The notes beneath the pieces are model-generated. The model made no database searches and had not been told where the DNA came from. It worked only from the letters and a program-made list of their open reading frames with translations. From Psychrobacter sp. P11F6 (lineage in GTDB: Bacteria > Pseudomonadota > Gammaproteobacteria > Pseudomonadales > Moraxellaceae): DNA of 64,000 nt. The stretch lies in NCBI RefSeq assembly GCF_001435295.1, contig NZ_CM003594.1:2294001-2358000 (forward strand). The letters are read 5' to 3'. Each line of letters opens with the position of its first letter. Positions within the stretch are counted from its first letter, which is position 1. The position numbers and the translations under genes were made by a program. This document shows, piece by piece, positions 2,939 to 18,839 of this stretch.

Positions 2939-3514
2939 ATGGCTTTATCACTTAATAAAGGCGGTAACTTATCGCTTACCAAAACTGACCCAAATTTGAC
3001 CAAGCTGCTTATCGGTCTTGGTTGGGATGAACGCGCAACTTCTGGTGCTGAGTTTGATCTTGATGCCAGTGTGTTTTTACTGAATACAGCAGGTAAAGTA
3101 CGCGGCGACCATGACTTCATTTTCTATAACCAGCTTAAGTCTGATAATGGCGCGGTTGAGCATACTGGTGATAACCGCACTGGCGAAGGTGATGGAGATG
3201 ATGAAGTCGTTAAAGTAAATCTCACCCAAGTCCCAGCTGATGTGGACAAAATTGTCGTCACTGTTACTATTCATGATGCGGCGGCTCGTAGTCAAAACTT
3301 TGGTCAAGTTGCCAATGCCTTTATTCGTGTCGTGAATGAAGAGACAGGCACTGAAGTCGTACGTTTTGATTTGGCAGAAGATTACTCTGTGGAAACAGCA
3401 ATGGTATTTGGCGAAGTCTATCGTCACAACGGTGAGTGGAAATTCCGTGCCGTTGGTCAAGGCTATTCAGGCGGCTTGCAAGCCATGTGTCAACAGTATG
3501 GCGTTGTTATCTAA
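2939..3514 (+). CDS. terD: TerD-family tellurite/stress resistance protein (TerD/TerE type)
   Basis: This 191-residue cytoplasmic protein is a single TerD domain. It opens with the family N-terminus [13 protein letters not shown], has DLDAS at residues 40-44, and carries the acidic calcium-binding loop [13 protein letters not shown] at 77-89. It ends with the conserved [18 protein letters not shown] segment. TerD/E proteins are Ca2+-binding components of the Ter stress system, which is linked to tellurite, phage and oxidative stress tolerance; the molecular role is unsettled. A strong AAGGA site precedes the ATG. It is a close paralogue of the gene at 5323, with the acidic loop at identical residue positions. 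I cannot separate TerD from TerE by sequence alone. Confidence 0.93.
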
Positions 3515-3699
3515 TGTGATAACTTATTCATGCTTAGACTACTATATGACCATTAAACTCAAAATATAAAGCAAGTATTAGCCCTCTATTTGTACTCACC
3601 ATTAGCAATGATAATGGCTGTAAAATATGGTTGCAAAATAGTCACAATTATTCATAGCTAAATGACTAGTAATGCTTTATGTTTCGTTTAGAATTATGC

Positions 3700-3731
3700 A
3701 AAAAAAGTGGTTAGCGATAACCGCTTTTTTT
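3700..3731. terminator. Symmetric A/T-flanked hairpin between terD and the DUF475 gene
   Basis: AAAAAAAGTGGTTA, loop GCGA, TAACCGCTTTTTTT. The stem is followed by a seven-base T run, so it can act as a terminator for terD or as an attenuator ahead of the DUF475 gene. It sits 57 bases upstream of the chosen DUF475 start, inside an open frame that continues into that gene. Confidence 0.7.
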
Positions 3732-3788
3732 GTGGTTTGTGCCTATAGTAGGCCGACCTTAGCTTTATGCAACCAGACAGGATGTGTC

Positions 3789-4853
3789 ATGAGACATTTT
3801 TATTTAGACTTTATTTTCACCGCCATCGCCCTAGCGGTCGCGGCATGGTGGGGATATTCACATGGCGGTATGGGCGGTATGATAACCACCCTATCTATTA
3901 CCGCTATTTTGGCCGTCATGGAGATTTCATTATCGTTTGATAATGCGGTGGTCAACGCCTCAGTCCTTAAAGGCTGGGATGAGTTTTGGAAAAAGATATT
4001 TTTAACGGTGGGTATTTTAATCGCCGTCTTTGGTATGCGCTTGGTATTCCCTATTGTTATCGTCGCTGTTACTGCCGACCTTGGTATGATGCAAGTAATC
4101 GATTTGGCATTGAACGATCCTAAAGAATACTCAGCCAGACTATTGGCGCATCATGCTGAAATCTCAGCATTTGGTGGTATTTTCTTATTGCTCGTCTTCT
4201 TAAACTTCATCTTTGATGAAAAAGAAGTACACTGGTTCGATTGGCTTGAGAGCCGTCTGGCAAAATTAGGCAAAGTCGATGCCATGAGCGTGTTTGTCGC
4301 GCTTATCGTCTTGATGATTGCCGTATCATTTGCCAAGCCTGAGCAATCAGCTGCGGTCCTAATCGCTGGCGTATGGGGCATCTTAGTTTACCTTGGCGTA
4401 CAAGTGGTTTCTGGTATGTTAGAGGGTGATCTTGAAGAAGAACTAGACGCTCAAGGTAATAGTACTGGTGCTGCAACTAGCGCGATTATGAAAGGTGGTA
4501 TTATCGGTTTCTTATATCTAGAAGTCCTTGATGCCTCATTCAGTTTCGATGGCGTGATTGGCGCATTTGCGATTACTAATGACGTAATCGTTATTATGCT
4601 AGGTCTGGCTATTGGTGCGATGTTTGTACGTTCGATGACTATCTTCTTGGTCGACAAAGGCACCTTGGATGAATATGTCTATCTTGAGCATGGCGCGCAT
4701 TATGCTATCGGTGCTTTAGCTATCATCATGCTGCTATCAGTGAAATTCCATGTACCAGAGCTTATCACTGGTCTGATTGGTATTACCTTTATTGGTTGGG
4801 CGTTTGTCGCTTCACTCAATTATCGTAAGCGAGAAGCCAAATCAATTACTTGA
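3789..4853 (+). CDS. DUF475 / TerC-like integral membrane protein
   Basis: This 354-residue polytopic membrane protein resembles the TerC superfamily, whose members are implicated in metal (manganese) export and tellurite resistance. Two internally related signatures are seen: MEISLSFDNAVVNASVL near the N-terminus and LDASFSFDGVIGAFAI in the second half. The acidic FDN/FDG residues lie within membrane helices, as in TerC. About nine hydrophobic segments are visible, with an acidic loop (EGDLEEELDAQ) between the halves. The start follows AGGA with a 6-base gap. The frame extends upstream to 3672 and would then add a signal-peptide-like stretch, but that would place the 3700-3731 terminator hairpin inside the gene. 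Substrate unknown; placement among TerD genes supports a Ter role. Confidence 0.88.
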   Translation: MRHFYLDFIFTAIALAVAAWWGYSHGGMGGMITTLSITAILAVMEISLSFDNAVVNASVLKGWDEFWKKIFLTVGILIAVFGMRLVFPIVIVAVTADLGMMQVIDLALNDPKEYSARLLAHHAEISAFGGIFLLLVFLNFIFDEKEVHWFDWLESRLAKLGKVDAMSVFVALIVLMIAVSFAKPEQSAAVLIAGVWGILVYLGVQVVSGMLEGDLEEELDAQGNSTGAATSAIMKGGIIGFLYLEVLDASFSFDGVIGAFAITNDVIVIMLGLAIGAMFVRSMTIFLVDKGTLDEYVYLEHGAHYAIGALAIIMLLSVKFHVPELITGLIGITFIGWAFVASLNYRKREAKSIT

Positions 4854-5185: not shown

Positions 5186-5322
5186 AAATCGTAATGATAT
5201 GCAGGGCGTGGCATACGAGTAAATTTATTCATTGCTTGCATTTATATATCGACCACTGCACTATTTTAGTTTATTTTTTTTATCATTCAATCCACTCAAT
5301 TATTAATCAAAAGGATATTTAT

Positions 5323-5898
5323 ATGGCTATTAGCTTAACAAAAGGCGGCAACGTAAACTTATCAAAAGAAGCGCCGGGTTTAACCAATATTACAGTCGGT
5401 CTTGGCTGGGATCCACGTGCTACTGACGGTCAAGAGTTTGACTTAGATGCAATTGGCTTTTTGGTCAATGAAGCAGGCAAAGTACGTAATGACCAAGATT
5501 TCATCTTTTTTAACAACTTAAAGTCAGACAATGGCGCGGTTGAGCACACAGGTGATAACCGTACTGGTGAAGGCGACGGCGATGATGAAAAAATCAAAAT
5601 CAACCTTGCTAGCATTCCAGCTGACGTAAGCAAAGTCGCTATCTGTGCGATTATTTATGAAGGTCAAAGCCGCAATCAAAACTTTGGTCAAGTGGGTGAT
5701 GCCTACATCCGTGTCGTTAACGACAATGGCGATGCTGAAATCGCACGTTATGACTTATCAGAAGACGGTAGCACCGAAACTGCGATGATTTTTGGTGAAT
5801 TATATCGCCATAGTGGTGACTGGAAATTCCGTGCCGTTGGTCAAGGCTTCAGCGGTGGTCTTGGACCATTAGCGGCTTCTTATGGCGTTAATGTTTAA
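5323..5898 (+). CDS. terD: TerD-family protein, second copy (TerD/TerE type)
   Basis: This 191-residue protein is a single TerD domain, closely similar to and the same length as the product at 2939. It has the N-terminal [16 protein letters not shown] strand, EFDLDA at about 38-43, the calcium loop [13 protein letters not shown] at 77-89, and the C-terminal [18 protein letters not shown] segment. The open frame extends 43 codons upstream, but AAGGA eight bases before this ATG and the paralogue's N-terminus fix the start here. It has its own promoter region behind tandem terminators, so the two terD copies are probably controlled separately. One copy probably corresponds to TerD and the other to TerE; which is which is unclear. 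Confidence 0.93.
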
Positions 5899-6931: not shown

Positions 6932-7540
6932 ATGGCAGTTAGTTTACAAAAAGGTCAGAAAATCTCCCTAAGCAAAGAAGCGGGCGGCGAGCTTACCCAA
7001 GTAAAACTGGGTCTAGGCTGGGACGTTGCTCAAAACCCTCAAGATAAAAAAGGTGGGTTCCTGGGCAAGTTATTCGGTGGTGGTAGCGGCGGCGACTCGA
7101 TTGACTTAGATGCCTCGTGCATCATGTTTGATACCAATAAACAAGCCATCGATGCGATTTGGTTCAGTCAGCTGAAATCAAAAGATGGCAGTATCGTCCA
7201 TACTGGTGATAACCGCACTGGTGACGGCGATGGTGACGACGAAGTTATCAATGTCGATCTTTCAAAAATCCCTGCCAATGTCGTCTCTCTAGTATTTACG
7301 GTCAATAGTTTCACTGGTCAAACGTTTGAAACGGTAGAAAATGCATTTTGTCGTATCGTCAATGCCAATAACAATCAGGAAGTCGCGCGCTACAATTTAT
7401 CAGCGCAAGGTGGGCATACCGCGATGATTATGGCAAAAGTATATCGTCATAATAATGAGTGGAAAATGCATGCAATTGGTGAAACGGCTTCTGGTCGTAC
7501 TTTTCATGACTTGATGCCTGCCATCACGCCGCACGCATAA
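6932..7540 (+). CDS. terZ: TerZ-like TerD-family protein
   Basis: This 202-residue TerD-domain protein has the TerZ hallmarks. A Gly/Lys-rich insertion (about residues 39-56, KKGGFLGKLFGGGSGGDS) precedes IDLDASCIMFD. The calcium loop GDNRTGDGDGDDE lies at 92-104. It continues with INVDLSKIPANV, FTVNSFTGQTFETVENAFCR and a C-terminal GRTFHDL segment. From memory this order matches enterobacterial TerZ closely. TerZ is a cytoplasmic Ca2+-binding component of the Ter system. The start has AAGGA seven bases upstream. A clear terminator follows. Confidence 0.9.
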   Translation: MAVSLQKGQKISLSKEAGGELTQVKLGLGWDVAQNPQDKKGGFLGKLFGGGSGGDSIDLDASCIMFDTNKQAIDAIWFSQLKSKDGSIVHTGDNRTGDGDGDDEVINVDLSKIPANVVSLVFTVNSFTGQTFETVENAFCRIVNANNNQEVARYNLSAQGGHTAMIMAKVYRHNNEWKMHAIGETASGRTFHDLMPAITPHA

Positions 7541-8438: not shown

Positions 8439-9728
8439 TTACTTACTACCACGCTTCCAACTAAAGCCCCAATTAAAGGCTTTGTCCATTTCTTGATGGC
8501 CTTTAAAGTACTCATTAATACGCTCAACGTTGATACTGCCATTTTGATTGACCAAGCGCGCAATCGCACACATTGGTAGATTACCTGTTCCTTCTGTCAA
8601 ACGCGTTTCGATCGGTGGTTGGTCGGGTACATGAATGGTCACGACACCATCTGTTTGCGCCCAATTGGGTGCGCCTTCATAGATAAAGGCGAAAATAAAC
8701 ACCTCTTCTATCTGCGACCATTGCTGACCGTTAATATCTAGCCACTCACCGCCGCTCACCTGCCCCGTTCTATCATCAGCACGCAAACAAACGTAAGGCG
8801 CTGATGTTAAGCTACCAAAGCGATTGCCCAAGGCCTGAATCAAGGTTTTTTCACCATTTTTTAGATGAATCATCGCCCCAACATCAAGGTCAATACCGCC
8901 CGCTTTATGTTGTTTGAAAAGATCGCCTAACAAGCCTTTTTTGGGTGCTTGCTGATTGGCAGTCGGATTTTGGTTCCAGTTTAAGTTAACAGAGATTTTA
9001 CCAAAGTCATCACGTTTCTTTAGGTTGATGCTAGACTGATTTTTGGTTAAAGTGATTTTGCTTAGGTTAATTGACGGATTTGGAGAAGCTGTAGGAATTG
9101 GCGGCGGCGTGCTTGTTTGAGGTGCACTACCTGCTTTCTGCGTATTAATTGGGCGCTGCGTATTGATGGGCTGAGCTTGACCTTGTGACTGGTCTTGTAC
9201 AGGGCTTTGAGCGGGCGCTTCATCAGCAATCTCTACACCAAAATGCTCAGACAAAGGCTTCAGCCCTCCTTCGAAGCCTTGGGCAATAAAACGGAACTTC
9301 CAGCTACCTTGGCGGCGATAACATTCCGCTAAAATAATCGCTTTTTCATTACGTCCAGCTGCACTTAATTGGCAAGTCATCAGCACTTGACTGCCTTGCA
9401 ATACCTGAATATCGACATCGCCAACTTGCGCAAGCGGCTGCGCACTAGAAAACGCTAACGCTATCTTCTCAATATTTGCAGGCTGCGCAGGTAAATTAAT
9501 ATCAAAAAACCCATCGCTATCATGACCACGGAAACTCACACTGCCATCATCGCTACGTGTCTGCCCATAAAATATCATGTCGCCATCGCCGCGTACTTTA
9601 CCGTCAGTTGTCAGGCGATATGCCGCGCAATCGACTGCACTTTGGCTTAAAATACGAATGCTAATATGATCTGTTGGCAGTGGCGCATTGGCACCAGCAA
9701 TCAGTTGTTGAGGTTGGATTTGGCTCAT
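8439..9728 (-). CDS. terA: TerA-like protein with two TerD-related domains
   Basis: This 429-residue protein fits TerA in layout. An N-terminal TerD-like domain (about 1-160) includes GKVRGDGDMIFYGQ and AECYRRQGSWKFRFIAQGFEGGL. A Gln/Pro-rich linker (about 165-215) follows, then a C-terminal TerA domain with SVNLNWNQ, GLLGDLFKQHKAGGIDLDVGAM and a Trp-rich ending. The canonical [13 protein letters not shown] loop is absent; GHDSDGF and DDRTGQVSGGEW occupy comparable places, so calcium binding may be lost or changed. ATG 9728 is preferred over ATG 9731 because it leaves six bases after AGGA. It is the only reverse-strand gene of the island and is divergent from the ATP-grasp gene. Confidence 0.85.
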   Translation of the reverse strand: MSQIQPQQLIAGANAPLPTDHISIRILSQSAVDCAAYRLTTDGKVRGDGDMIFYGQTRSDDGSVSFRGHDSDGFFDINLPAQPANIEKIALAFSSAQPLAQVGDVDIQVLQGSQVLMTCQLSAAGRNEKAIILAECYRRQGSWKFRFIAQGFEGGLKPLSEHFGVEIADEAPAQSPVQDQSQGQAQPINTQRPINTQKAGSAPQTSTPPPIPTASPNPSINLSKITLTKNQSSINLKKRDDFGKISVNLNWNQNPTANQQAPKKGLLGDLFKQHKAGGIDLDVGAMIHLKNGEKTLIQALGNRFGSLTSAPYVCLRADDRTGQVSGGEWLDINGQQWSQIEEVFIFAFIYEGAPNWAQTDGVVTIHVPDQPPIETRLTEGTGNLPMCAIARLVNQNGSINVERINEYFKGHQEMDKAFNWGFSWKRGSK

Positions 9729-9731
9729 CAT

Positions 9732-10058
9732 ACATCCTTTGAATTATTTATTATGTGCGTGTGTTTGTTATGCTAATAATTGTCATATAGTAGCATGGAT
9801 AGCAGCTGATTTTTAAAGCGTACGACCGTTCAATAACATGCCAATGACCCTAAAAAATATTTTTACAAATCCTTCATGCTATTTTGTCAGCAGCATTTAT
9901 AACGCTTAGCATTTGTATATAATAGCCCCTACTATTAGCAATATTACGGCTTGTTTTTTTATTGCTGTTTGAGGCTTGCTTATATTCCTGATGGTGTTGC
10001 GATGACGATAGTGAATTATTCAATTATATCTAAAACCTACGATAATGCTGAGAGAATT
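9732..10058. promoter_or_regulatory. Divergent control region between terA and the ATP-grasp gene
   Basis: These 327 bases hold the promoters of terA (leftward) and the ATP-grasp run (rightward). A TATAAT at 9918-9923 is a possible rightward -10, but I find no good -35 at 17 bases. No clear operator palindrome was seen. An open frame from TTG 9951 runs into the ATP-grasp gene but lacks a ribosome binding site. Confidence 0.4.
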
Positions 10059-11222
10059 ATGAAAACCCCTGCTAACGATAACGATCATATAACATCAACT
10101 GCCGCATCACCTGCCGTTTGGTTAGCTGAAGGTCAGTCAAGCCAGCGTGATATGTTAGCCAGCCTGCAAACCCTAAAAAATCACGCTGATACTCCGTTTA
10201 ACATTATCGCTTCACACCGCCACAATAGACCTGAGATTTTTGAATTTGCTGACAGCGTTTACCACGAGCCTTCTACTAGCACCGCAGATAACGATGAGCA
10301 AGCAGTGCTGGAATCTGTTGAGCCATTGATGCCGCGTTGGCAGTTTGTGTTAGAACAAGCGCAGAAAAACAATGTAAAAGTGTTGCTCACTGGACGCAAT
10401 GGTATTGATTACGAAGACAAGCGTGAGGCGTTTAACGCGGCTGGCATTCGTTTATTGACGGGTGCAACGAGTGTGGCAGCGTTAGAAGTGATAGATGATA
10501 AGTTTGCCTTTATGCAGCAGTGTCATGAGCATGATATTCCCGTTGCCGAGGCGTGGCGCTTTGATAATGTCGCAGAGCTTGAAGCATTACTTGCTACGTA
10601 CGGTCACCAACCATTATGCGTCAAACCGGTTACGGGTATTTTCGCTCAAGGGTTTTGGCGACTAGATTTAGCAAAAAATGATGGGGAACAGTACGATAGC
10701 TTTGAGCATTTATATTTTACTGAAGATAAAAAAATCAATACCACGCAATTTATTAATGCCTATGCAAACAGTGTCATGGTGCAGGAACGCCCAATTCCCA
10801 TGCTGCTAATGCCTTATTTGTCAGGGCAAGAGTACTCTATCGATGTCGTCTGTGAATATGGCGAAGTATTGGCTGCTGTCACCCGTTATAAAACGGGGAA
10901 AATTCAGCATATCGGCTACGAGCAAGCGGTCATGGATGTCGTCATTCCACTAATAAAAGCCTTTGGCTGCGATGGCATCGTCAGTGTCCAAACCAAAGCC
11001 GACGATGACGGTCAGCACCGTGTGCTTGAGATTAATAGTCGCCCTTCTGGTGGCATCGACTACACCACCCATAGCGGTGTGGATTTGACCCAAGTTGGAT
11101 TTGCCTATTGGCTGGGCTTAACCGATAAACCGATACTGGCTGATATCGCGCAACAAATAACCCCCTGCCAAGTACGCTCTATTATGGTCGGTGTAAAAGT
11201 TGAAGAAGACATCACTGAATAA
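10059..11222 (+). CDS. ATP-grasp ligase of the Ter-associated biosynthetic module
   Basis: This 387-residue protein has ATP-grasp architecture. It has an N-terminal pre-ATP-grasp Rossmann-like part, then PLCVKPVTG with the nucleotide-binding Lys near residue 189. GQEYSIDVVCEYGEVLAAV follows, and the metal-binding end VLEINSRPSGGIDY lies near 330. Such enzymes use ATP to join a carboxylate to an amine or thiol through an acyl phosphate. The substrate is unknown. It opens a forward run with two phosphoribosyltransferases, a HAD phosphatase and a lyase, which suggests synthesis of a small nucleoside-like molecule. ATG 10059, preceded by GAGAGA, is chosen over upstream in-frame starts that lack a site. 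From memory, ATP-grasp genes beside Ter genes are a described association. Confidence 0.85.
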   Translation: MKTPANDNDHITSTAASPAVWLAEGQSSQRDMLASLQTLKNHADTPFNIIASHRHNRPEIFEFADSVYHEPSTSTADNDEQAVLESVEPLMPRWQFVLEQAQKNNVKVLLTGRNGIDYEDKREAFNAAGIRLLTGATSVAALEVIDDKFAFMQQCHEHDIPVAEAWRFDNVAELEALLATYGHQPLCVKPVTGIFAQGFWRLDLAKNDGEQYDSFEHLYFTEDKKINTTQFINAYANSVMVQERPIPMLLMPYLSGQEYSIDVVCEYGEVLAAVTRYKTGKIQHIGYEQAVMDVVIPLIKAFGCDGIVSVQTKADDDGQHRVLEINSRPSGGIDYTTHSGVDLTQVGFAYWLGLTDKPILADIAQQITPCQVRSIMVGVKVEEDITE

Positions 11223-11309: not shown

Positions 11310-12554
11310 ATGACAGCACAAACCACGTTAGTGTTAGGGGAAAATACGGTCATCGCGACATCGAATTTTTCGGTCGCCTTTTCGACGACAAATCAGTCAA
11401 AGTTTGGCGAGCAGCTTGGGCTACTATGGCTGCCTTTGGATGAGCATCGAAAAGCCGCTTGTAGTCCTGCTTATCTTCATGAACCGAAGGAATGGGCGCA
11501 GCTCAATAGCAAAGATAATCCAAATGCATGGCAATTGGATTTGCCTGCATTGTTTGATAAACAAGGTGCAAGCTTTTTACAACTGATTGCTTATGTTTAT
11601 CATGAGCCAAGCCTAAACTTACCTGCCGTTGAATTGAGCAAGGTAAACTTAACCCTCAATGAGGGCGATATTTGTTATGAATTTACCACAAGTGAGCGCC
11701 ATGTCAAGGCGGCGATCATATTAGAGATATACCGACGCAATGGACAATTTAAATGCCGTGCCCTTGGTGAAAGCTCCACCCAAGGACTGGCAAGTCTTGA
11801 GCATCATGTACAAGTGAGCCTTGATATGCGTCCGCCAGATACGCATGCCCTTATCCAAGATGCCCAGCGCGCACAGCAGCAAGGTTATCCTAACAGTGAT
11901 GCGCGTCCGCCCAGACAAGTTCAGTATGGTGAAACTTGGACAGGGACAGCGTTTGCTATCGATCCCTATCATTTACTGACTTGTTATCATGTCATTGAAT
12001 CGGCGGCGATGATTGGTGTGCGTCAGCAAGGGCAGCCCGATCATGAGGCGCAAGTGGTACTCAGCGATATTGGTAGTGATTCAGCCATTATTAAAGTAAG
12101 TGAGCCACTGCCAAGTTATTTACCCTTAGCACAGCGTTGTACTGATAATTTGGGTGAAACCATCACCACCTTGGGATTTCCGTTATCAGGATTGAGTAGC
12201 CAATTACAAGTAACGCAAGGCTGCATCTCAGGACTGACAGGGTTTGGCGATGATATTCGCTATCTGCAATTTACTGCGCCTATTCAGCCAGGCTCTAGTG
12301 GCAGCCCTTTATTACTGCCGACTGGCGAAGTTATCGGCATGGTAACGTCCAGCCTCGTCCATGAGCATGCACAAAATATGAACTATGCGGTGAAATTTCA
12401 GTTATTATCCGCCCTACTCGCGAGCGCTGGAATTAGTTTAGATAATTTATCTGACTCATCTGGCATGTTACGCACGACAGCTGCGCCGCTGACCACGCCG
12501 CAATTAAGCAAACAAAGTCGCGGAGCTTTGTGGTTAGTAGGTTGTCAGGGTTAA
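11310..12554 (+). CDS. TerD-like domain fused to a trypsin/HtrA-type serine protease
   Basis: This 414-residue protein has two parts. Residues 1 to about 170 resemble a TerD/TerA domain (SVAFSTTNQSKFGEQLGLLW; ILEIYRRNGQFKCRALGE) but lack the acidic calcium loop. Residues about 205-380 are a chymotrypsin-fold protease with a full triad: His227 in TCYHVIE, Asp257 in IGSDSAIIKV and Ser330 in PGSSGSP. GTAFAI before the His and GEVIGMV after the Ser are typical of HtrA-like peptidases. No PDZ domain, signal peptide or membrane helix is seen, so it should act in the cytoplasm. It lies 87 bases after the ATP-grasp gene. A plausible role is stress-triggered cleavage of a partner; the substrate is unknown. 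Confidence 0.85.
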   Translation: MTAQTTLVLGENTVIATSNFSVAFSTTNQSKFGEQLGLLWLPLDEHRKAACSPAYLHEPKEWAQLNSKDNPNAWQLDLPALFDKQGASFLQLIAYVYHEPSLNLPAVELSKVNLTLNEGDICYEFTTSERHVKAAIILEIYRRNGQFKCRALGESSTQGLASLEHHVQVSLDMRPPDTHALIQDAQRAQQQGYPNSDARPPRQVQYGETWTGTAFAIDPYHLLTCYHVIESAAMIGVRQQGQPDHEAQVVLSDIGSDSAIIKVSEPLPSYLPLAQRCTDNLGETITTLGFPLSGLSSQLQVTQGCISGLTGFGDDIRYLQFTAPIQPGSSGSPLLLPTGEVIGMVTSSLVHEHAQNMNYAVKFQLLSALLASAGISLDNLSDSSGMLRTTAAPLTTPQLSKQSRGALWLVGCQG

Positions 12555-12952: not shown

Positions 12953-14026
12953 ATGATTTATATAATAATTTTAGTTGCTGTTTTTTTCATAATAGGTGCT
13001 TTGTCAAATGATGATGAAAGTGTTTCAGATAATACTGCCACTAGAAACTATTCCTACACTACGAAGCTAGAGGGCAAGTATCTACACTTAAGTATGGATA
13101 CTATTCCTTATGGAACAGAAGTTGTTATTCTTGAACTTGCTTATCAGGGACAAAATGTAAAAAGTTATTATGATATTTTTAATGATGAAGAAGGCAACTT
13201 TATAACTGGTGCTCGCAATAACGATAATAATGGTCCTTACTCAATAAGTGTGCCTATCAATGCTTTAATTTTGCCTAGAAATAAAGATATCACCTTAGAG
13301 TTTAATATTACGCTTTTAAAAGATGGCGTTATTCTCGATAAACTCAAATCTCAAGAGGAAATTCGTATAAGCTCTAGCTCTTTTTTACTTATGGAATGGT
13401 TCATTCCTACAATAAAAATTTTGGCTTACTACTCCATCAAAAAAGGTGATTCTAATGATTCAAAATCTTGGTCCAAAGACAATATCAAAATTATCAAAAA
13501 TGTTTTTTCAAATCACATAGAAAACAATCCAGAAGAACGAGATTTTTTAAAAAATCAAATGAAAATCTTATCAGGTACTTCAATAGATTTGAGAGAATGT
13601 GTTAAGGATTTCAATAATAGAGCAAATACTACTAATGACAAGAATACTATTTTCTATGCATCAGCTCGGATAATAATCAATAACCTAGAGTCAGGAAAAT
13701 GGTTGCATATAGAAAAAGGTCTAGCAGAGATTAAAAATCTGAGCAAATTAATGGGCATTAGCAATGAAATATTAGAGGATGTTTACTCTGGTTTTGAAAC
13801 CCTTAAAAACCAAGACAAACCTACAGAAGCTTCTGATAATCTAAAAGCATTAAAGGTTCTTGGTTTGTTAGAAGGAGCTACTATCGAAGAAATGCGTAGA
13901 GCTTATAGATTAAAGATCAAAGACTTTCATCCTGACAAATACACTCACTTACCTGAATCTGTAAAACTGGTACTTCAAGAAAAAGCTCAAGAACTAAACC
14001 TTGCAAAAGAAACACTACGATTTTAG
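12953..14026 (+). CDS. Membrane-anchored protein with a TerB-like helical region and C-terminal DnaJ domain
   Basis: This 357-residue protein starts with one transmembrane helix (about residues 1-17). A beta-rich region follows (about 30-140, with YGTEVVILELAY and NGPYSISVPIN). An alpha-helical region at about 145-285 is reminiscent of TerB/DjlA domains. It ends in a short DnaJ domain whose HPD tripeptide is at 326-328 (LKIKDFHPDKY). The J domain should stimulate an Hsp70 such as DnaK at the membrane face, as DjlA does. The gene is much more AT-rich than its neighbours and has a weak ribosome site. It lies 25 bases before the PRTase gene, so they may be co-transcribed. The DnaJ call is firm; the TerB-like call is tentative. 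Confidence 0.75.
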   Translation: MIYIIILVAVFFIIGALSNDDESVSDNTATRNYSYTTKLEGKYLHLSMDTIPYGTEVVILELAYQGQNVKSYYDIFNDEEGNFITGARNNDNNGPYSISVPINALILPRNKDITLEFNITLLKDGVILDKLKSQEEIRISSSSFLLMEWFIPTIKILAYYSIKKGDSNDSKSWSKDNIKIIKNVFSNHIENNPEERDFLKNQMKILSGTSIDLRECVKDFNNRANTTNDKNTIFYASARIIINNLESGKWLHIEKGLAEIKNLSKLMGISNEILEDVYSGFETLKNQDKPTEASDNLKALKVLGLLEGATIEEMRRAYRLKIKDFHPDKYTHLPESVKLVLQEKAQELNLAKETLRF

Positions 14027-14051: not shown

Positions 14052-15380
14052 ATGACTACAAACAGTATTTCCATGAAAAAAAGCTATGTCTGCACCATTA
14101 CCCTACCACGCGGCAATCTTGATTTAACCTATCAAACCAATTCAGCCACTACGAAAAATGGGGCAGAACCAAGTAATGATTATCAATTAGAAGGCTTGCT
14201 TGGCTTTGCACAACGCATTAACCCAAAACGTGCCTTTTTGTTTGTCTCAAAAGTATTAGGTCGTCATATTCCAGTGGCTCCTAGCATCATGCGTCATGCT
14301 TTTACTGACTTGGCGAATTTGGTTCCTAGCGATTTGCCTGAGCCGATTTTAGTCATCGGTATGGCAGAGACAGCCGTTGGCTTATCTGCGGGGGTACATC
14401 AAGCGCTACAAACGCGTTACCCCAATGCCTTACTATTAAACTCTACGCGTCATGCGCAACATGATGACAGTCATGACAGTAGCAGTGACTCTTTATTAAC
14501 CACTTTCAGCGAAGACCACAGTCATGCCAGCCAGCATCTCATTTATCAAAGTGCAGATACAGTGACCCAAGCGCAATTACTAGCGAGCAAGACCTTGATT
14601 ATGGTGGATGATGAAGCGTCGACGGGCAATACTTGCGTCAATGTCGTCACTGCCCTTCGTAACGCAGGACTTGACCAACTAGAGCAAGTACATCTTACCA
14701 CTTTGGTTGATTGGTCTTTAAACCAGAATCAGAATGCAGCCGATGCCAATGAAGCTGTGTCTGACCAAATCGCAAAACGCCTGCCCAATATCCACTTTCA
14801 ACGTCATCATCTACTGTCTGGTGCATGGACTTGGACAGATGCGCCCAATCCTGAACCGATAACGATGCCATCGGTTGATACAACTGAAGCAGGCAGTCAG
14901 TCTCTAGGTAATACTGGCAATTGGGGACGTTTCCCAACCCTAGATAGCACCGACGGGTTTGATCATTATCTTTTGAGATTTCAAACTGCCTTTAACGTTT
15001 TTAACAAGCAAGCTCAACCTGAGAAAGAGCCGTTTGATAAAGAACAGTTGCCACAGCGTATCTTAGTATTGGGCAGTAATGAGTTTGTTTGGTTACCGTT
15101 TTTATTGGCTGAATGGCTTGCGCAAAATACGCATATAGAGAATAGTAAGAATACGGTTAATTTTAGTGCGTTAACCCGCTCACCGATTGCGCTTGGTGGC
15201 GCAATTACCTCGATGCTAAGTTTTAATGATAATTATGGGCTTGGTATGACCAACTTTGCGTACAACGTTACACCTAGCAATTGGGATTTGATTGTCTTGT
15301 GTGTGGAAACGTCCGCTGATAGCGTTGATACTATGTGGAAAGGTTTGGAGAATGTATTGGTGGTGAGTCCGACGCTGTAA
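14052..15380 (+). CDS. Phosphoribosyltransferase with C-terminal TRSP domain
   Basis: This 442-residue protein has an N-terminal PRTase-fold domain with the PRPP-binding signature MVDDEASTGNTCVNV (about residue 178) and the loop PILVIGMAETAVGLSAGV (about 97). The C-terminal part (about 330-442) contains ALTRSPIALGGAI, which matches the TRSP domain named for that motif, and FNDNYGLGMTNFAYNV. From family knowledge, PRTase_2-TRSP proteins occur next to Ter genes and are proposed to transfer phosphoribosyl groups in making a nucleoside-like metabolite. The base substrate is unknown. ATG 14052 has a weak site; ATG 14082 is an alternative. HAD and StiP genes follow. Confidence 0.85.
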   Translation: MTTNSISMKKSYVCTITLPRGNLDLTYQTNSATTKNGAEPSNDYQLEGLLGFAQRINPKRAFLFVSKVLGRHIPVAPSIMRHAFTDLANLVPSDLPEPILVIGMAETAVGLSAGVHQALQTRYPNALLLNSTRHAQHDDSHDSSSDSLLTTFSEDHSHASQHLIYQSADTVTQAQLLASKTLIMVDDEASTGNTCVNVVTALRNAGLDQLEQVHLTTLVDWSLNQNQNAADANEAVSDQIAKRLPNIHFQRHHLLSGAWTWTDAPNPEPITMPSVDTTEAGSQSLGNTGNWGRFPTLDSTDGFDHYLLRFQTAFNVFNKQAQPEKEPFDKEQLPQRILVLGSNEFVWLPFLLAEWLAQNTHIENSKNTVNFSALTRSPIALGGAITSMLSFNDNYGLGMTNFAYNVTPSNWDLIVLCVETSADSVDTMWKGLENVLVVSPTL

Positions 15381-15462: not shown

Positions 15463-16290
15463 ATGACCAGCCCATTTTTTCAAGCCAATCCTGATATCGT
15501 TAAGCCTTACGCGCTAATGGATTTGGACGACACGCTATTTCAAACTCAGCGTAAAATTGACGCATGGGACTTACCCACCACTGAAGCTGAAAACTTAGTT
15601 TGCGCAACCGTTAACAAACAAGGCGAGCCATTAAGCTTTATGAGTCAGCGCCAAGCGGCGTTTTTTAACTGGCTACTTGCTAGCACTGATCTAATCGTAG
15701 TGACGGCACGCGACCGCAGTGAAATCGAGCGTGTTAAACTGCCTTTTGATAGCTGGCAAATTTTGACTCATGGCGCGATTATTCTTGACAAAGACGGTGC
15801 GTTACAAGCCCAGTGGCAACAGTATATGTATAATAAGCTTGCGCCATTGCAAGAAAAATTGCAGCAGCTGAGCCAGCTATTCGCGAATCACAGCAAAAAT
15901 GACAATAGCCAGCTGGTCTTTACACCACATATCGATAGCTTTAGTGATGGCGCTGATAATAAAGAATTAACCATTTATCTGGCTATCAAACATGCGCAAA
16001 AAGACCATCAAGCATTAGTAGATCTCGCTGCAAAACTGCCAACGTTAATACGAGACTTTGAGCAGGATTTTTATGTGCACGTGAATGCGAATAATCTAGC
16101 TATATTGCCGCACGCAGTTCATAAGCGCCATGCGGTACAGTTCTTGTTAGCTAATCATTTAGACAGTCAGCGACCAAGTTTTGGCTTTGGTGACAGTCTG
16201 GCAGATTTACCATTTTTACAGCTGCTTGACTGGTATGGTATGCCCAATCATGGTCAGTTACATGAACGACTTAGCGCTCAATCATTCTAA
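15463..16290 (+). CDS. HAD-superfamily phosphatase of the Ter module
   Basis: This 275-residue protein carries the HAD motifs. Motif I is MDLDDTLF, with the nucleophilic Asp at residue 20. Motif II is the Thr of LIVVTARDR. A basic motif III follows (HAVHKRHAV), and motif IV is GFGDSLADLPF. A C2-type cap inserted between motifs II and III suggests a Cof or sucrose-phosphatase-like member acting on a small phosphorylated metabolite. It lies between the two PRTase genes, so removal of a phosphate from a phosphoribosyl intermediate is a reasonable role. Spacing of 82 and 63 bases to its neighbours fits an operon. Confidence 0.85.
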   Translation: MTSPFFQANPDIVKPYALMDLDDTLFQTQRKIDAWDLPTTEAENLVCATVNKQGEPLSFMSQRQAAFFNWLLASTDLIVVTARDRSEIERVKLPFDSWQILTHGAIILDKDGALQAQWQQYMYNKLAPLQEKLQQLSQLFANHSKNDNSQLVFTPHIDSFSDGADNKELTIYLAIKHAQKDHQALVDLAAKLPTLIRDFEQDFYVHVNANNLAILPHAVHKRHAVQFLLANHLDSQRPSFGFGDSLADLPFLQLLDWYGMPNHGQLHERLSAQSF

Positions 16291-16353: not shown

Positions 16354-17550
16354 ATGACCCATCATATAACAAACCCTAATGTTCAAAAATTAGAAGCATA
16401 TGGCTCAGGCAGCTATCTTGCCAGTGATGTGACCGTACTGCTCGATATAGTCGCTAAAGAAGCGGTCGCCGATGTACCAGTCAGTCAAAAAGAAGCGCTC
16501 ATTCAAAGTGGGCAACGTCATTATTCTGATATGTTGACCTTGGAGCAAGCGCCTACTGCTATGCATGAGCAGCTTTACACGCAAGCATTAGAGCAAGGAG
16601 CTGAGAGGACTGCCACTGACATTGCTAATTTGGCTTATACGCTACATCACATTTTTCAAAAATCTCGAAATGAACATACCGTTAGTAATGAGCGCCCGCT
16701 AGTCTTAGTCAGTTTGGTACGCGCAGGTTTGCCAGTTGGCGTTTTGTTGCAGCGTGCGTTAGCAGACGTTAATAGTAGCTATGCTTTGCCGAGCGTGCAT
16801 TATGGAATCAGCATCATTCGCGACCGCGGACTTGATCCAGTTGCGTTACAAATGATATTGAATGCTCATCCAGACAGTCCTATCGTATTTGTTGACGGCT
16901 GGACGGGCAAAGGCGCGATTTATCAAGAGCTTGCTCATAGTTTAGAAAAATTTAGCGATCCTAGCCATGTAAACTTTGCCAATATCTTTCATCAAGGCGT
17001 AGGTGTTATTCCCTTATTAACGCTGGCTGATCCAGCTGGCGTTGCTTGGCTTGCAGCTAGCATCGATGACTGGCTGATTCCCTCAGGGCTATTAAATAGT
17101 ACGGTATCAGGACTGATTTCGCGAAGTTTATATACCGAGCCAGCATTAGGGCTACACCGCAGCGTGTTTTATGATAGCTTAATTGAGGTCGACCATAGCT
17201 TAGCTTTCATCACTCATATAGATACAGCGCGCCGTGCATTAGCCCCATCTTTGCAGTGCTTGCCGACGTTTCAGCAGCCGCGCTATCAGACAGCTGCTTT
17301 AATCGACAAGCTGGCAGCAGACTACGATATCGCCAATCGTAACCGCATTAAGCCAACGATTGCAGAGGCAACACGGGCGATATTACGCCGTGACCCTGAA
17401 CGCATATTATTAGCCAGCGCTGATCATCCTGATACCATACTGCTAAGACATTTATGTGCCCAGCGAAATATCATTATTAGTGTATTAGGTGATAAAATAC
17501 ATCCCTATCAAGCCATCACGCTTATCAAGCAACGTAGCGAAGACCACTAA
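16354..17550 (+). CDS. StiP-family phosphoribosyltransferase-like protein
   Basis: This 398-residue protein matches the StiP/PRTase family found with tellurite genes. The N-terminal signature EALIQSGQRHYSDMLTLE and the PRTase-like elements LVSLVRAGLPVGVLLQRAL and IVFVDGWTGKGAIYQEL are seen. The second occupies the PRPP-loop position, with Trp-Thr-Gly-Lys-Gly replacing the usual acidic pair. GISIIRDRGLDPVAL precedes it. Some databases call the family a cysteine protease, but the visible motifs fit a PRTase fold better. With the PRTase-TRSP protein at 14052 it would give two phosphoribosyl-transfer steps. It probably belongs to the operon starting at 14052 or earlier. Confidence 0.85.
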   Translation: MTHHITNPNVQKLEAYGSGSYLASDVTVLLDIVAKEAVADVPVSQKEALIQSGQRHYSDMLTLEQAPTAMHEQLYTQALEQGAERTATDIANLAYTLHHIFQKSRNEHTVSNERPLVLVSLVRAGLPVGVLLQRALADVNSSYALPSVHYGISIIRDRGLDPVALQMILNAHPDSPIVFVDGWTGKGAIYQELAHSLEKFSDPSHVNFANIFHQGVGVIPLLTLADPAGVAWLAASIDDWLIPSGLLNSTVSGLISRSLYTEPALGLHRSVFYDSLIEVDHSLAFITHIDTARRALAPSLQCLPTFQQPRYQTAALIDKLAADYDIANRNRIKPTIAEATRAILRRDPERILLASADHPDTILLRHLCAQRNIIISVLGDKIHPYQAITLIKQRSEDH

Positions 17551-17762
17551 TCATTGCTACACTCGCGGTTTTTATAAACCAGACCCGTCTCAAACTCAAA
17601 GCAGCGAAAGAAAAGCGAAAGAAAAAGGTAAAACTACTCCTTCTTGTCGGCTAAACGAATTTGACATTACCAAACGTATTTTTGGGTTTGCGGTCATTGC
17701 TGCTAAGCCATATTACTTGATGATACTTCTTAGATTTTATAACCATTCACTTATCACTATTG

Positions 17763-18839
17763 ATGATGCCAATTATGTCAGATATGCAAAACAACGAGTC
17801 TACTCTTTATCAAAACACCCAGTCTTACGCTCACCTTATTACTGAGCGTCATGCGATGCTAAAACCACATGCGCATCACCCGTATCAGTTGGGGGCTAGC
17901 CTATACATGCCAGCAACTCGCCAAGATATTTGGCAAGTCATTAAGCGTGATAAATTACCAACGATTAATAGTATTATCATCTGCCTAGAAGATGCCGTCA
18001 GCCATAGTGATGTTGAGCTGGCACTTGAGCGCTTGCAAACGTTGCTGCATACATGGGCGACGCATGTCGATAGCATCAATGACCCATCAAAACATGCCGA
18101 CATTCAGATTGAGCAACCAACACGCCCGCTGGTATTTATACGTCCGCGTCATCCAGCGATGTTAGAGCAGCTCTCAGGTTTTGCCCATATCGATTTGATT
18201 GATGGCTTTGTCATGCCAAAAGTCGATATGTATAGTCTGTCTAATTGGCGTATGGCTTGTCAAAATCTGAGTACTGAGCAACTATTGATGCCGACGCTTG
18301 AAACCGCAGCGCTATTTAATCCACATCATAATCAGGAATTGGCCATTGGTTTTAAAGAAGCTTTTAGCCAGCCTGTATTTGCCTTGCGTATCGGTGGCAA
18401 TGATTTGTTTGCAGCATTGCGTTTGCGACGTCCCAAAAACAGCATCGTTTATGATACCCCTATCGGCACCCTTGCCTATCAGCTGCTCGGCTGCTTTGTG
18501 CCGCATGGCTTTTATTTAACAGCGCCTGTCTTTGAATATTTGGATCAGCCAACGCTATTTATGCAAGAGCTAACCCGCGATGTTAGCTTAGGATTGGTCG
18601 GCAAAACAGTCATTCATCCAAGCCAAATTGCGCTGGTGCAACAAGCCTATTGCGTACCATTGAGCATTTTAGATGAGGCGCAAGCAATCTTGCATAGCGA
18701 GGCAAAAGCGGTGTTTAAATATAACAATACTATGCTAGAGCCTGCTACCCATCGCGCTTGGGCAACCGAAATTGTCAATCGTGCCGAGGCATGTGGCACC
18801 CTTGATGACGGTAATAATGACTATACGGCACGGTTATAA
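17763..18839 (+). CDS. HpcH/HpaI aldolase / citrate lyase beta-like protein of the Ter module
   Basis: This protein of about 358 residues has CitE-type TIM-barrel motifs: IIICLEDAV (metal-site Glu/Asp), VFIRPRHP, DGFVMPKVD, LMPTLETAALF, LRIGGNDLF and GKTVIHPSQI. Such enzymes make or break C-C bonds using an enolate stabilised by Mg2+. It is the last gene of the presumed biosynthetic set and has a perfect terminator 85 bases downstream. The 212-base gap after the StiP gene may hold a promoter, but none stands out. The start is uncertain among ATGs at 17763, 17766 and 17775, because no good Shine-Dalgarno site is visible. Confidence 0.85.
   Translation: MMPIMSDMQNNESTLYQNTQSYAHLITERHAMLKPHAHHPYQLGASLYMPATRQDIWQVIKRDKLPTINSIIICLEDAVSHSDVELALERLQTLLHTWATHVDSINDPSKHADIQIEQPTRPLVFIRPRHPAMLEQLSGFAHIDLIDGFVMPKVDMYSLSNWRMACQNLSTEQLLMPTLETAALFNPHHNQELAIGFKEAFSQPVFALRIGGNDLFAALRLRRPKNSIVYDTPIGTLAYQLLGCFVPHGFYLTAPVFEYLDQPTLFMQELTRDVSLGLVGKTVIHPSQIALVQQAYCVPLSILDEAQAILHSEAKAVFKYNNTMLEPATHRAWATEIVNRAEACGTLDDGNNDYTARL

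What the first reader, a model, noticed from the sequence alone, without database searches (positions are those of the whole stretch)
11310..12554. TerD-like domain fused to a complete HtrA-type serine protease
The N-terminal ~170 residues resemble a TerD/TerA domain, and residues ~205-380 hold a full His227/Asp257/Ser330 triad. There is no signal peptide, membrane helix or PDZ domain, so this looks like a cytoplasmic protease steered by a Ter domain. It could cut TerD partners or pathway enzymes on stress. I do not know of a characterised protein with this architecture.
Basis: partly seen in the sequence, partly recalled or inferred. Interest (0 to 1): 0.8.

Follow-up and report, generated by a model that had tools for sequence, protein, structure and literature searches.

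The report
Ter-linked serine protease, optional module gene
A bacterial stress-response gene cluster carries a protein that joins a tellurite-resistance-type (TerD) domain to a serine protease that looks intact; the combination was recorded in 2008 but its job is untested, and its neighbours suggest it is an optional partner of a little-understood metabolite-making pathway.

Summary
ORF 11310-12554 (414 aa, Psychrobacter) has a TerD fold (residues ~14-171) and a chymotrypsin-type protease (~202-376) with His227, Asp257 and Ser330, kept in 355 of 360 listed relatives; one has Asn for Asp, four are short rows with gaps. No PDZ match or hydrophobic membrane-type stretch was found. The protease half is under strong constraint (dN/dS ~0.04). 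The architecture is not new: TerD-Tryp was listed in 2008 for one Pseudomonas syringae protein. It occurs in Psychrobacter, Pseudomonas (including megaplasmids), Competibacteraceae and others. By family it is not an HtrA. The TerD half lacks most Ca2+-ligand residues of TerD. The gene sits between ATP-grasp and phosphoribosyltransferase genes of the Ter biosynthetic module, stays with that module in rearranged loci, and is optional. The same slot sometimes holds an NYN-domain protein, often fused to TerD. Best reading: a cytoplasmic protease acting as optional effector or processing subunit of the module, with TerD as docking or sensing part. Substrate and trigger are unknown. In E. coli, terC plus terD from a plasmid with a homologue sufficed for tellurite resistance, without the protease.

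The parts
11310..12554 (+). TerD-trypsin fusion gene (414 aa), the finding
11310..11834 (+). TerD-like half (residues 1-175); most Ca2+-ligand residues of TerD not kept
11913..12437 (+). chymotrypsin-fold protease domain (about residues 202-376)
11988..11990 (+). codon of His227 (triad)
12078..12080 (+). codon of Asp257 (triad)
12297..12299 (+). codon of Ser330 (triad)
12495..12551 (+). C-terminal tail (residues 396-414, predicted helix plus strand); a similar tail is seen by eye in many unfused relatives
9951..11222 (+). ATP-grasp of the Ter module (PF15632), directly upstream
14052..15380 (+). PRTase_2 - TRSP protein
15463..16290 (+). HAD-type hydrolase
16354..17550 (+). StiP - PELOTA protein
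17760..18839 (+). C-C bond lyase (PF15617)
8439..9731 (-). TerA-like protein (TerD domain; 'TerA' is my label)
2939..3514 (+). TerD protein 1
5194..5898 (+). TerD protein 2
6932..7540 (+). TerD protein 3
3672..4853 (+). TerC-like membrane protein (DUF475/TerC)

Best explanation
The protein is a cytoplasmic serine protease held by a degenerate TerD domain, and is an optional effector or processing subunit of the Ter biosynthetic module (ATP-grasp, PRTase-TRSP, HAD, StiP-PELOTA, C-C lyase). I think the TerD half docks it on the Ter or biosynthetic assembly, or reads its product, and so restricts the protease to a substrate in that complex; cleavage then switches or matures a component. Shown here by sequence and models: both folds, conserved triad, strong constraint, syntenic place, travel with the module, optional presence, loss of most Ca2+-ligand residues. 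Inferred: catalytic activity, cytoplasmic location, docking or sensing by TerD, substrate, trigger.
For: Folds and triad. Median pairwise dN/dS of the protease half 0.037, TerD half 0.146 (43 copies). In 46 Psychrobacter loci the ATP-grasp is the next named gene upstream in 40 and the PRTase the next module gene downstream in 45; six of the seven exceptions end at a contig edge. Same place on a Pseudomonas plasmid at 34% identity. In three rearranged Psychrobacter genomes (G077, G083, G088) the gene stays with PRTase, HAD and StiP while the ATP-grasp lies elsewhere. Class survey of 369 genomes: fusion in 5 (my reading of the hits), StiP over cut-off in 9, both in 4 (Fisher p 8e-7, without the window's own genome 3e-5, not corrected for kinship). 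In 100 Psychrobacter genomes, all 60 with the gene (58 near full length, 2 broken or partial) have a strong TerD hit and 59 a strong ATP-grasp hit, against 34 and 33 of the other 40; 'strong' is my line (best E below 1e-80 and 1e-30), since weaker hits to both families occur in all 100 (p 0.003 and 0.006).
Against: No activity, substrate or interaction was tested. The other module genes are present without it: in 13 of 14 fetched loci that lack an intact copy but have the ATP-grasp, PRTase, HAD, StiP and lyase all follow within the stretch; in an IncHI2 plasmid the PRTase follows the ATP-grasp directly; StiP covers at least 80% on 2562 plasmid records, the fusion on 127 (a tblastn at about 34% identity may miss more distant fusions). 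So the pathway does not need it. In one Competibacter-type genome (G298) no module gene was recognised beside the fusion (12 kb) and no StiP hit was found. The TerD half evolves faster than the protease half, which speaks against a tightly conserved TerD interface.
Confidence: 0.45

Rival explanations
1. Signal-gated effector: the TerD half binds the nucleoside-like product of the module and switches on the protease, in the way that other bacterial systems pair a nucleotide sensor with a protease or nuclease (recalled). An NYN-TerD protein in the same slot would be a sister effector.
For: The slot between ATP-grasp and PRTase holds the protease, an NYN-type protein, both, or neither: of 100 genomes, NYN-type genes lie next to the fusion in 13 and directly after the ATP-grasp without it in 4 (my reading of coordinates; domains of a part of them). 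The fusion TerD halves lack most Ca2+-ligand residues, leaving room for another ligand. Two papers suggest, citing Anantharaman et al. 2012, that TerD domains might recognise specialised nucleotide derivatives or sense a signal of this kind (passages of PMC7159879, and PMC7824862).
Against: I know of no identified product of the module and no shown TerD ligand of this kind; no call shows a binding pocket; two of the nine NYN-type slot proteins scanned have no TerD hit (L084, L096).
Confidence: 0.25
2. Quality-control protease for Ter proteins: it trims TerC/TerD/TerA assemblies, whose imbalance is harmful.
For: For genes of pRBL16, the plasmid that carries a homologue, terC plus terD (or terE) alone slowed growth of E. 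coli and terA or terZ relieved it (section 3.3 of PMC8779313 read). All 60 Psychrobacter genomes with the gene have a strong TerD hit.
Against: 34 of the other 40 genomes have strong TerD hits without the fusion, and in rearranged loci the gene stays with the biosynthetic genes rather than with terD.
Confidence: 0.15
3. Direct tellurite-resistance factor.
For: Lies in ter clusters of tellurite-resistant strains: in Psychrobacter glacincola BNF20 its place (189806-191047 of LIQB01000002.1) falls in the region the authors drew (189,803-204,267; figure legend).
Against: In E. coli, terC with terD or terE from pRBL16 was enough for resistance; the constructs were combinations of terZABCDE genes (PMC8779313).
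Confidence: 0.05
4. Pseudoprotease or scaffold: the fold is kept for binding, not cutting.
For: No activity data in the papers seen.
Against: His227, Asp257, Gly328 and Ser330 invariant in an alignment of 104 members of three subfamilies; very low dN/dS.
Confidence: 0.05

Closest known systems
TerD-Tryp architecture, YP_273108.1 of Pseudomonas syringae (PMC2605481, 2008; passages seen)
   Same: TerD module N-terminal to a trypsin-type protease; P. syringae proteins are among the relatives listed here.
   Different: Listed there as one protein, called not functionally characterised; the passages seen give no gene context. I did not compare that accession itself.
TerD proteins (PF02342; 3ibz, 2kxt)
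   Same: Fold of the N-terminal half.
   Different: Most of the Ca2+-ligand positions named in PMC8779313 (passage) are not kept in the fusion.
HtrA/Deg proteases (DegS, Deg2)
   Same: Protease fold and triad.
   Different: No PDZ match, no hydrophobic leader; far below NCBIfam cut-offs (59.1 of 416.2 bits); the genome's own HtrA falls outside the fused group.
Unfused Trypsin_2 proteases of Pseudomonadota (L075-L078, L102-L120)
   Same: Closest protease domains found outside the fusions; many share a similar C-terminal tail by eye.
   Different: No TerD seen; 17 of the 19 have a hydrophobic N-terminal stretch (15-residue mean of at least 1.79), as exported proteins do.
Ter biosynthetic module (Anantharaman, Iyer and Aravind 2012; recalled and seen only as cited)
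   Same: Gene content of the neighbourhood.
   Different: Whether that paper mentions this protease could not be checked.

Membership tests
TerD family (PF02342) | TerD fold | tested here: met
TerD family (PF02342) | Pfam gathering score | tested here: inconclusive
   24.2 of 25.3 bits, 25.5; relative L082 92.5 bits
TerD family (PF02342) | Ca2+-ligand residues of TerD | tested here: not met
   Of 34 fusion halves none keeps Trp29, Asp40, Asp42, Asn79 or Glu89, 8 keep Asp78, 7 Leu41, 11 Gly84, 1 each Gly82 and Asp88; 6 of 6 canonical TerDs keep all ten. The window's TerA-like N-domain also lacks most of them, so the loss is not special to the fusion, and the alignment is uncertain there
Chymotrypsin-fold serine proteases (Trypsin_2) | fold and His-Asp-Ser triad | tested here: met
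Chymotrypsin-fold serine proteases (Trypsin_2) | proteolytic activity | not testable with these tools
   needs purified protein
HtrA/Do family | PDZ domain | tested here: not met
   no PDZ match in Pfam at E 0.1
HtrA/Do family | family score cut-off (TIGR02037 and the other Do/Deg models listed) | tested here: not met
   best 59.1 of 416.2 bits
HtrA/Do family | export signal or membrane anchor | tested here: inconclusive
   hydropathy only: no 19-residue mean above 1.38; no signal-peptide program
HtrA/Do family | trimer assembly | not testable with these tools
   no complex prediction
Ter biosynthetic module, as an optional member | conserved place beside ATP-grasp and PRTase genes | tested here: met
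Ter biosynthetic module, as an optional member | role in the pathway | not testable with these tools
   no product or phenotype known to me

The most novel reading that the evidence does not exclude
The fusion is a metabolite-gated protease: enzymes of the same gene run make a nucleoside-like signal, the degenerate TerD half senses it and releases proteolysis, and the gene position is an exchangeable effector slot that in related strains holds an NYN-TerD protein (predicted nuclease) instead of, or next to, the protease.
Probability: 0.22. Interest if true: 0.85.

Novelty: new member of a known kind. Interest (0 to 1): 0.5.

Why it matters
The Ter biosynthetic module is common on plasmids (StiP covers at least 80% on 2562 of 72,556 plasmid records), yet I know of no identified product or purpose for it. 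A protease of this module with a clear catalytic serine, at a place where NYN-TerD proteins also occur, gives a direct handle: one point mutant and one substrate search could show whether TerD domains steer or gate effector enzymes.

Tried and rejected
Considered and set aside: an HtrA family member (membership test); a chance or decaying fusion (conservation, low dN/dS and one fused group argue against it; the gene has nevertheless decayed in G002, G024, G041 and G094, with remnants between ATP-grasp and PRTase); a phage gene (5 of 50,697 records matched, none over 80% of the query, for the Competibacter type: 6 records, none over 80%); a known defence protease (PADLOC hits RT-Protease_XI, HamA and LmuA lie on the protease domain only).

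Limits: the tree has long branches, some flagged as possibly false joins, and its unfused rows were picked by similarity to a fusion; TerD in one fused row (L070) rests on alignment to a fusion, not on a Pfam scan. Trees, Fisher tests and dN/dS medians are not corrected for kinship or sampling; dN/dS used pairs with pS between 0.05 and 0.6 only. The third table used a guessed number of families and is not used. Of 383, 463 and 3541 relatives found, the 120 listed for each were used. The match list was capped, so weak remnants may be missed. The first structure model had poor active-site loops; the second is better (mean pLDDT 84.3, pTM 0.54). C-terminal tails were compared by eye.

Anantharaman, Iyer and Aravind 2012 is not held, so I cannot claim that the gene slot is undescribed; text searches made. 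Supplements were not read.

Full report

Is the protease real. Across 360 listed relatives the catalytic His is present in 360, the Asp in 357 and the Ser in 356. Five rows deviate: one Asn in place of Asp, and four rows of 226-276 residues with gaps. Median pairwise dN/dS over 43 Psychrobacter copies was 0.037 for the protease half (393 pairs), 0.146 for the TerD half (207 pairs) and 0.165 for the tail (216 pairs); the neighbouring genes tested gave 0.025 to 0.135. No PDZ match and no hydrophobic stretch of membrane or signal type were found.

How common is it. Of 100 Psychrobacter genomes, 58 have a stretch covering at least 360 of 414 residues (two of them, G059 and G076, are cut or frame-broken near an end), 2 have partial or broken copies (G049, G056), 4 have short remnants (G002, G024, G041, G094), and for 36 nothing beyond HtrA-type hits is listed in the capped table. 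Pseudomonas, Burkholderia, Microbulbifer and others carry a second group, including megaplasmids: 127 of 72,556 plasmid records cover at least 80% of the query, and of the 38 such rows in the spread listing 37 are Pseudomonas and 1 Stutzerimonas. A third group is in Competibacteraceae and others; the member scanned has a TerD domain well over the Pfam cut-off. In 369 Gammaproteobacteria genomes 9 matched at 1e-20, of which 5 are TerD fusions by my reading; one of them (G173) is frame-broken. In 398 Pseudomonadota genomes 22 matched, and apart from the window's genome the listed matches cover the protease part only. All 30 fused rows of a 54-row tree form one group (support 99/98) apart from 24 unfused ones, so one origin of the fusion is favoured. 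Of 19 unfused relatives examined, 17 have a hydrophobic N-terminal stretch, and many end in a similar tail by eye. So the tail seems to belong to the protease subfamily, and the fusion seems to have brought an exported protease type into the cytoplasm (inference).

Where it sits. In the window the order is: TerD protein 1, TerC-like, TerD protein 2, AIM24, TerD protein 3, TerA-like (opposite strand), ATP-grasp, fusion, a low-GC DnaJ-domain gene, PRTase-TRSP, HAD, StiP-PELOTA, C-C lyase. In 46 Psychrobacter loci the ATP-grasp is the next named gene upstream in 40; five of the six others end at the contig edge and one (L068) has 7 kb without it. The PRTase is the next module gene downstream in 45, the last (L029) ending at the contig edge; a DnaJ-type gene lies between in 3 and an NYN-TerD gene in 7. 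In G077, G083 and G088 the fusion stays with PRTase, HAD and StiP away from the ATP-grasp. A Pseudomonas plasmid has ATP-grasp, fusion, PRTase in the same order.

Optional presence. Of 15 stretches fetched from genomes without an intact copy, one (G075) has the ter genes but not the module at that place; the other 14 have the PRTase after the ATP-grasp. In 13 of these HAD, StiP and lyase follow (in L094 they were not seen in the 8.5 kb stretch). Four of the 14 hold a remnant of the fusion in the slot (three seen, the fourth, G041, by coordinates). Of the ten without remnant, five (L091, L093, L095, L098, L099) have under 200 bases between ATP-grasp and PRTase, two (L092, L096) hold an NYN-type gene and three other reading frames.

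An exchangeable slot. NYN-type genes lie beside the fusion in 13 of 100 genomes and directly after the ATP-grasp without it in 4 (G012, G022, G028, G086), by comparing coordinates. A TerD domain was found in 6 of the 7 slot proteins scanned and in L035, not in L096 or L084. That the NYN proteins are nucleases is inferred from the domain.

What the TerD half may do. Ca2+ ligands of TerD are reported at positions 40, 41, 42, 78, 79, 89 and 29, 82, 84, 88 (PMC8779313, passage). All ten residues are kept in 6 of 6 canonical TerDs; of 34 fusion halves none keeps Trp29, Asp40, Asp42, Asn79 or Glu89, and a minority keeps each of the others. The window's TerA-like N-domain lacks most of them as well. 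A Ca2+ sensor is therefore unlikely; docking or another ligand remains open.

Relation to tellurite. In E. coli, terC with terD or terE from pRBL16 sufficed for tellurite resistance (PMC8779313, section 3.3 read); the constructs were combinations of terZABCDE genes, and the protease homologue on that plasmid was not among them. The main texts of PMC8779313, PMC9537497, PMC7070040 and PMC5822837, all on ter-bearing strains or plasmids, do not contain the word trypsin; their supplements were not read.

Verdict. A real, widespread, conserved and, in the papers seen, uncharacterised TerD-serine protease: known architecture, unknown function. The link to the biosynthetic module and the exchangeable slot are the useful additions. 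The mechanism is inferred, at about 0.45.

Noticed in passing
L032, L035, L036, L042, L055, L065, L092 (between fusion or ATP-grasp and PRTase): NYN - OST-HTH/LOTUS - TerD proteins, a second TerD-fused protein type in the same gene slot.
   Followed up: partly
window 12953-14026: Low-GC (31%) gene for a protein with an N-terminal hydrophobic stretch and a C-terminal DnaJ match, found in only 3 of 46 related loci; perhaps a recent insertion.
   Followed up: no
L101 (G075): ter genes present but the biosynthetic module missing at that place, between pieces of the ATP-grasp and of the downstream hydrolase.
   Followed up: no
G000:C1:2967257-2967766 and 1322265-1322678: Two more TerD-domain matches far from the cluster in the window's genome.
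   Followed up: no
L082 3125-4357: Competibacter-type TerD-protease fusion after aminotransferase, methyltransferase and AAA_26 genes, which look like biotin synthesis to me.
   Followed up: partly
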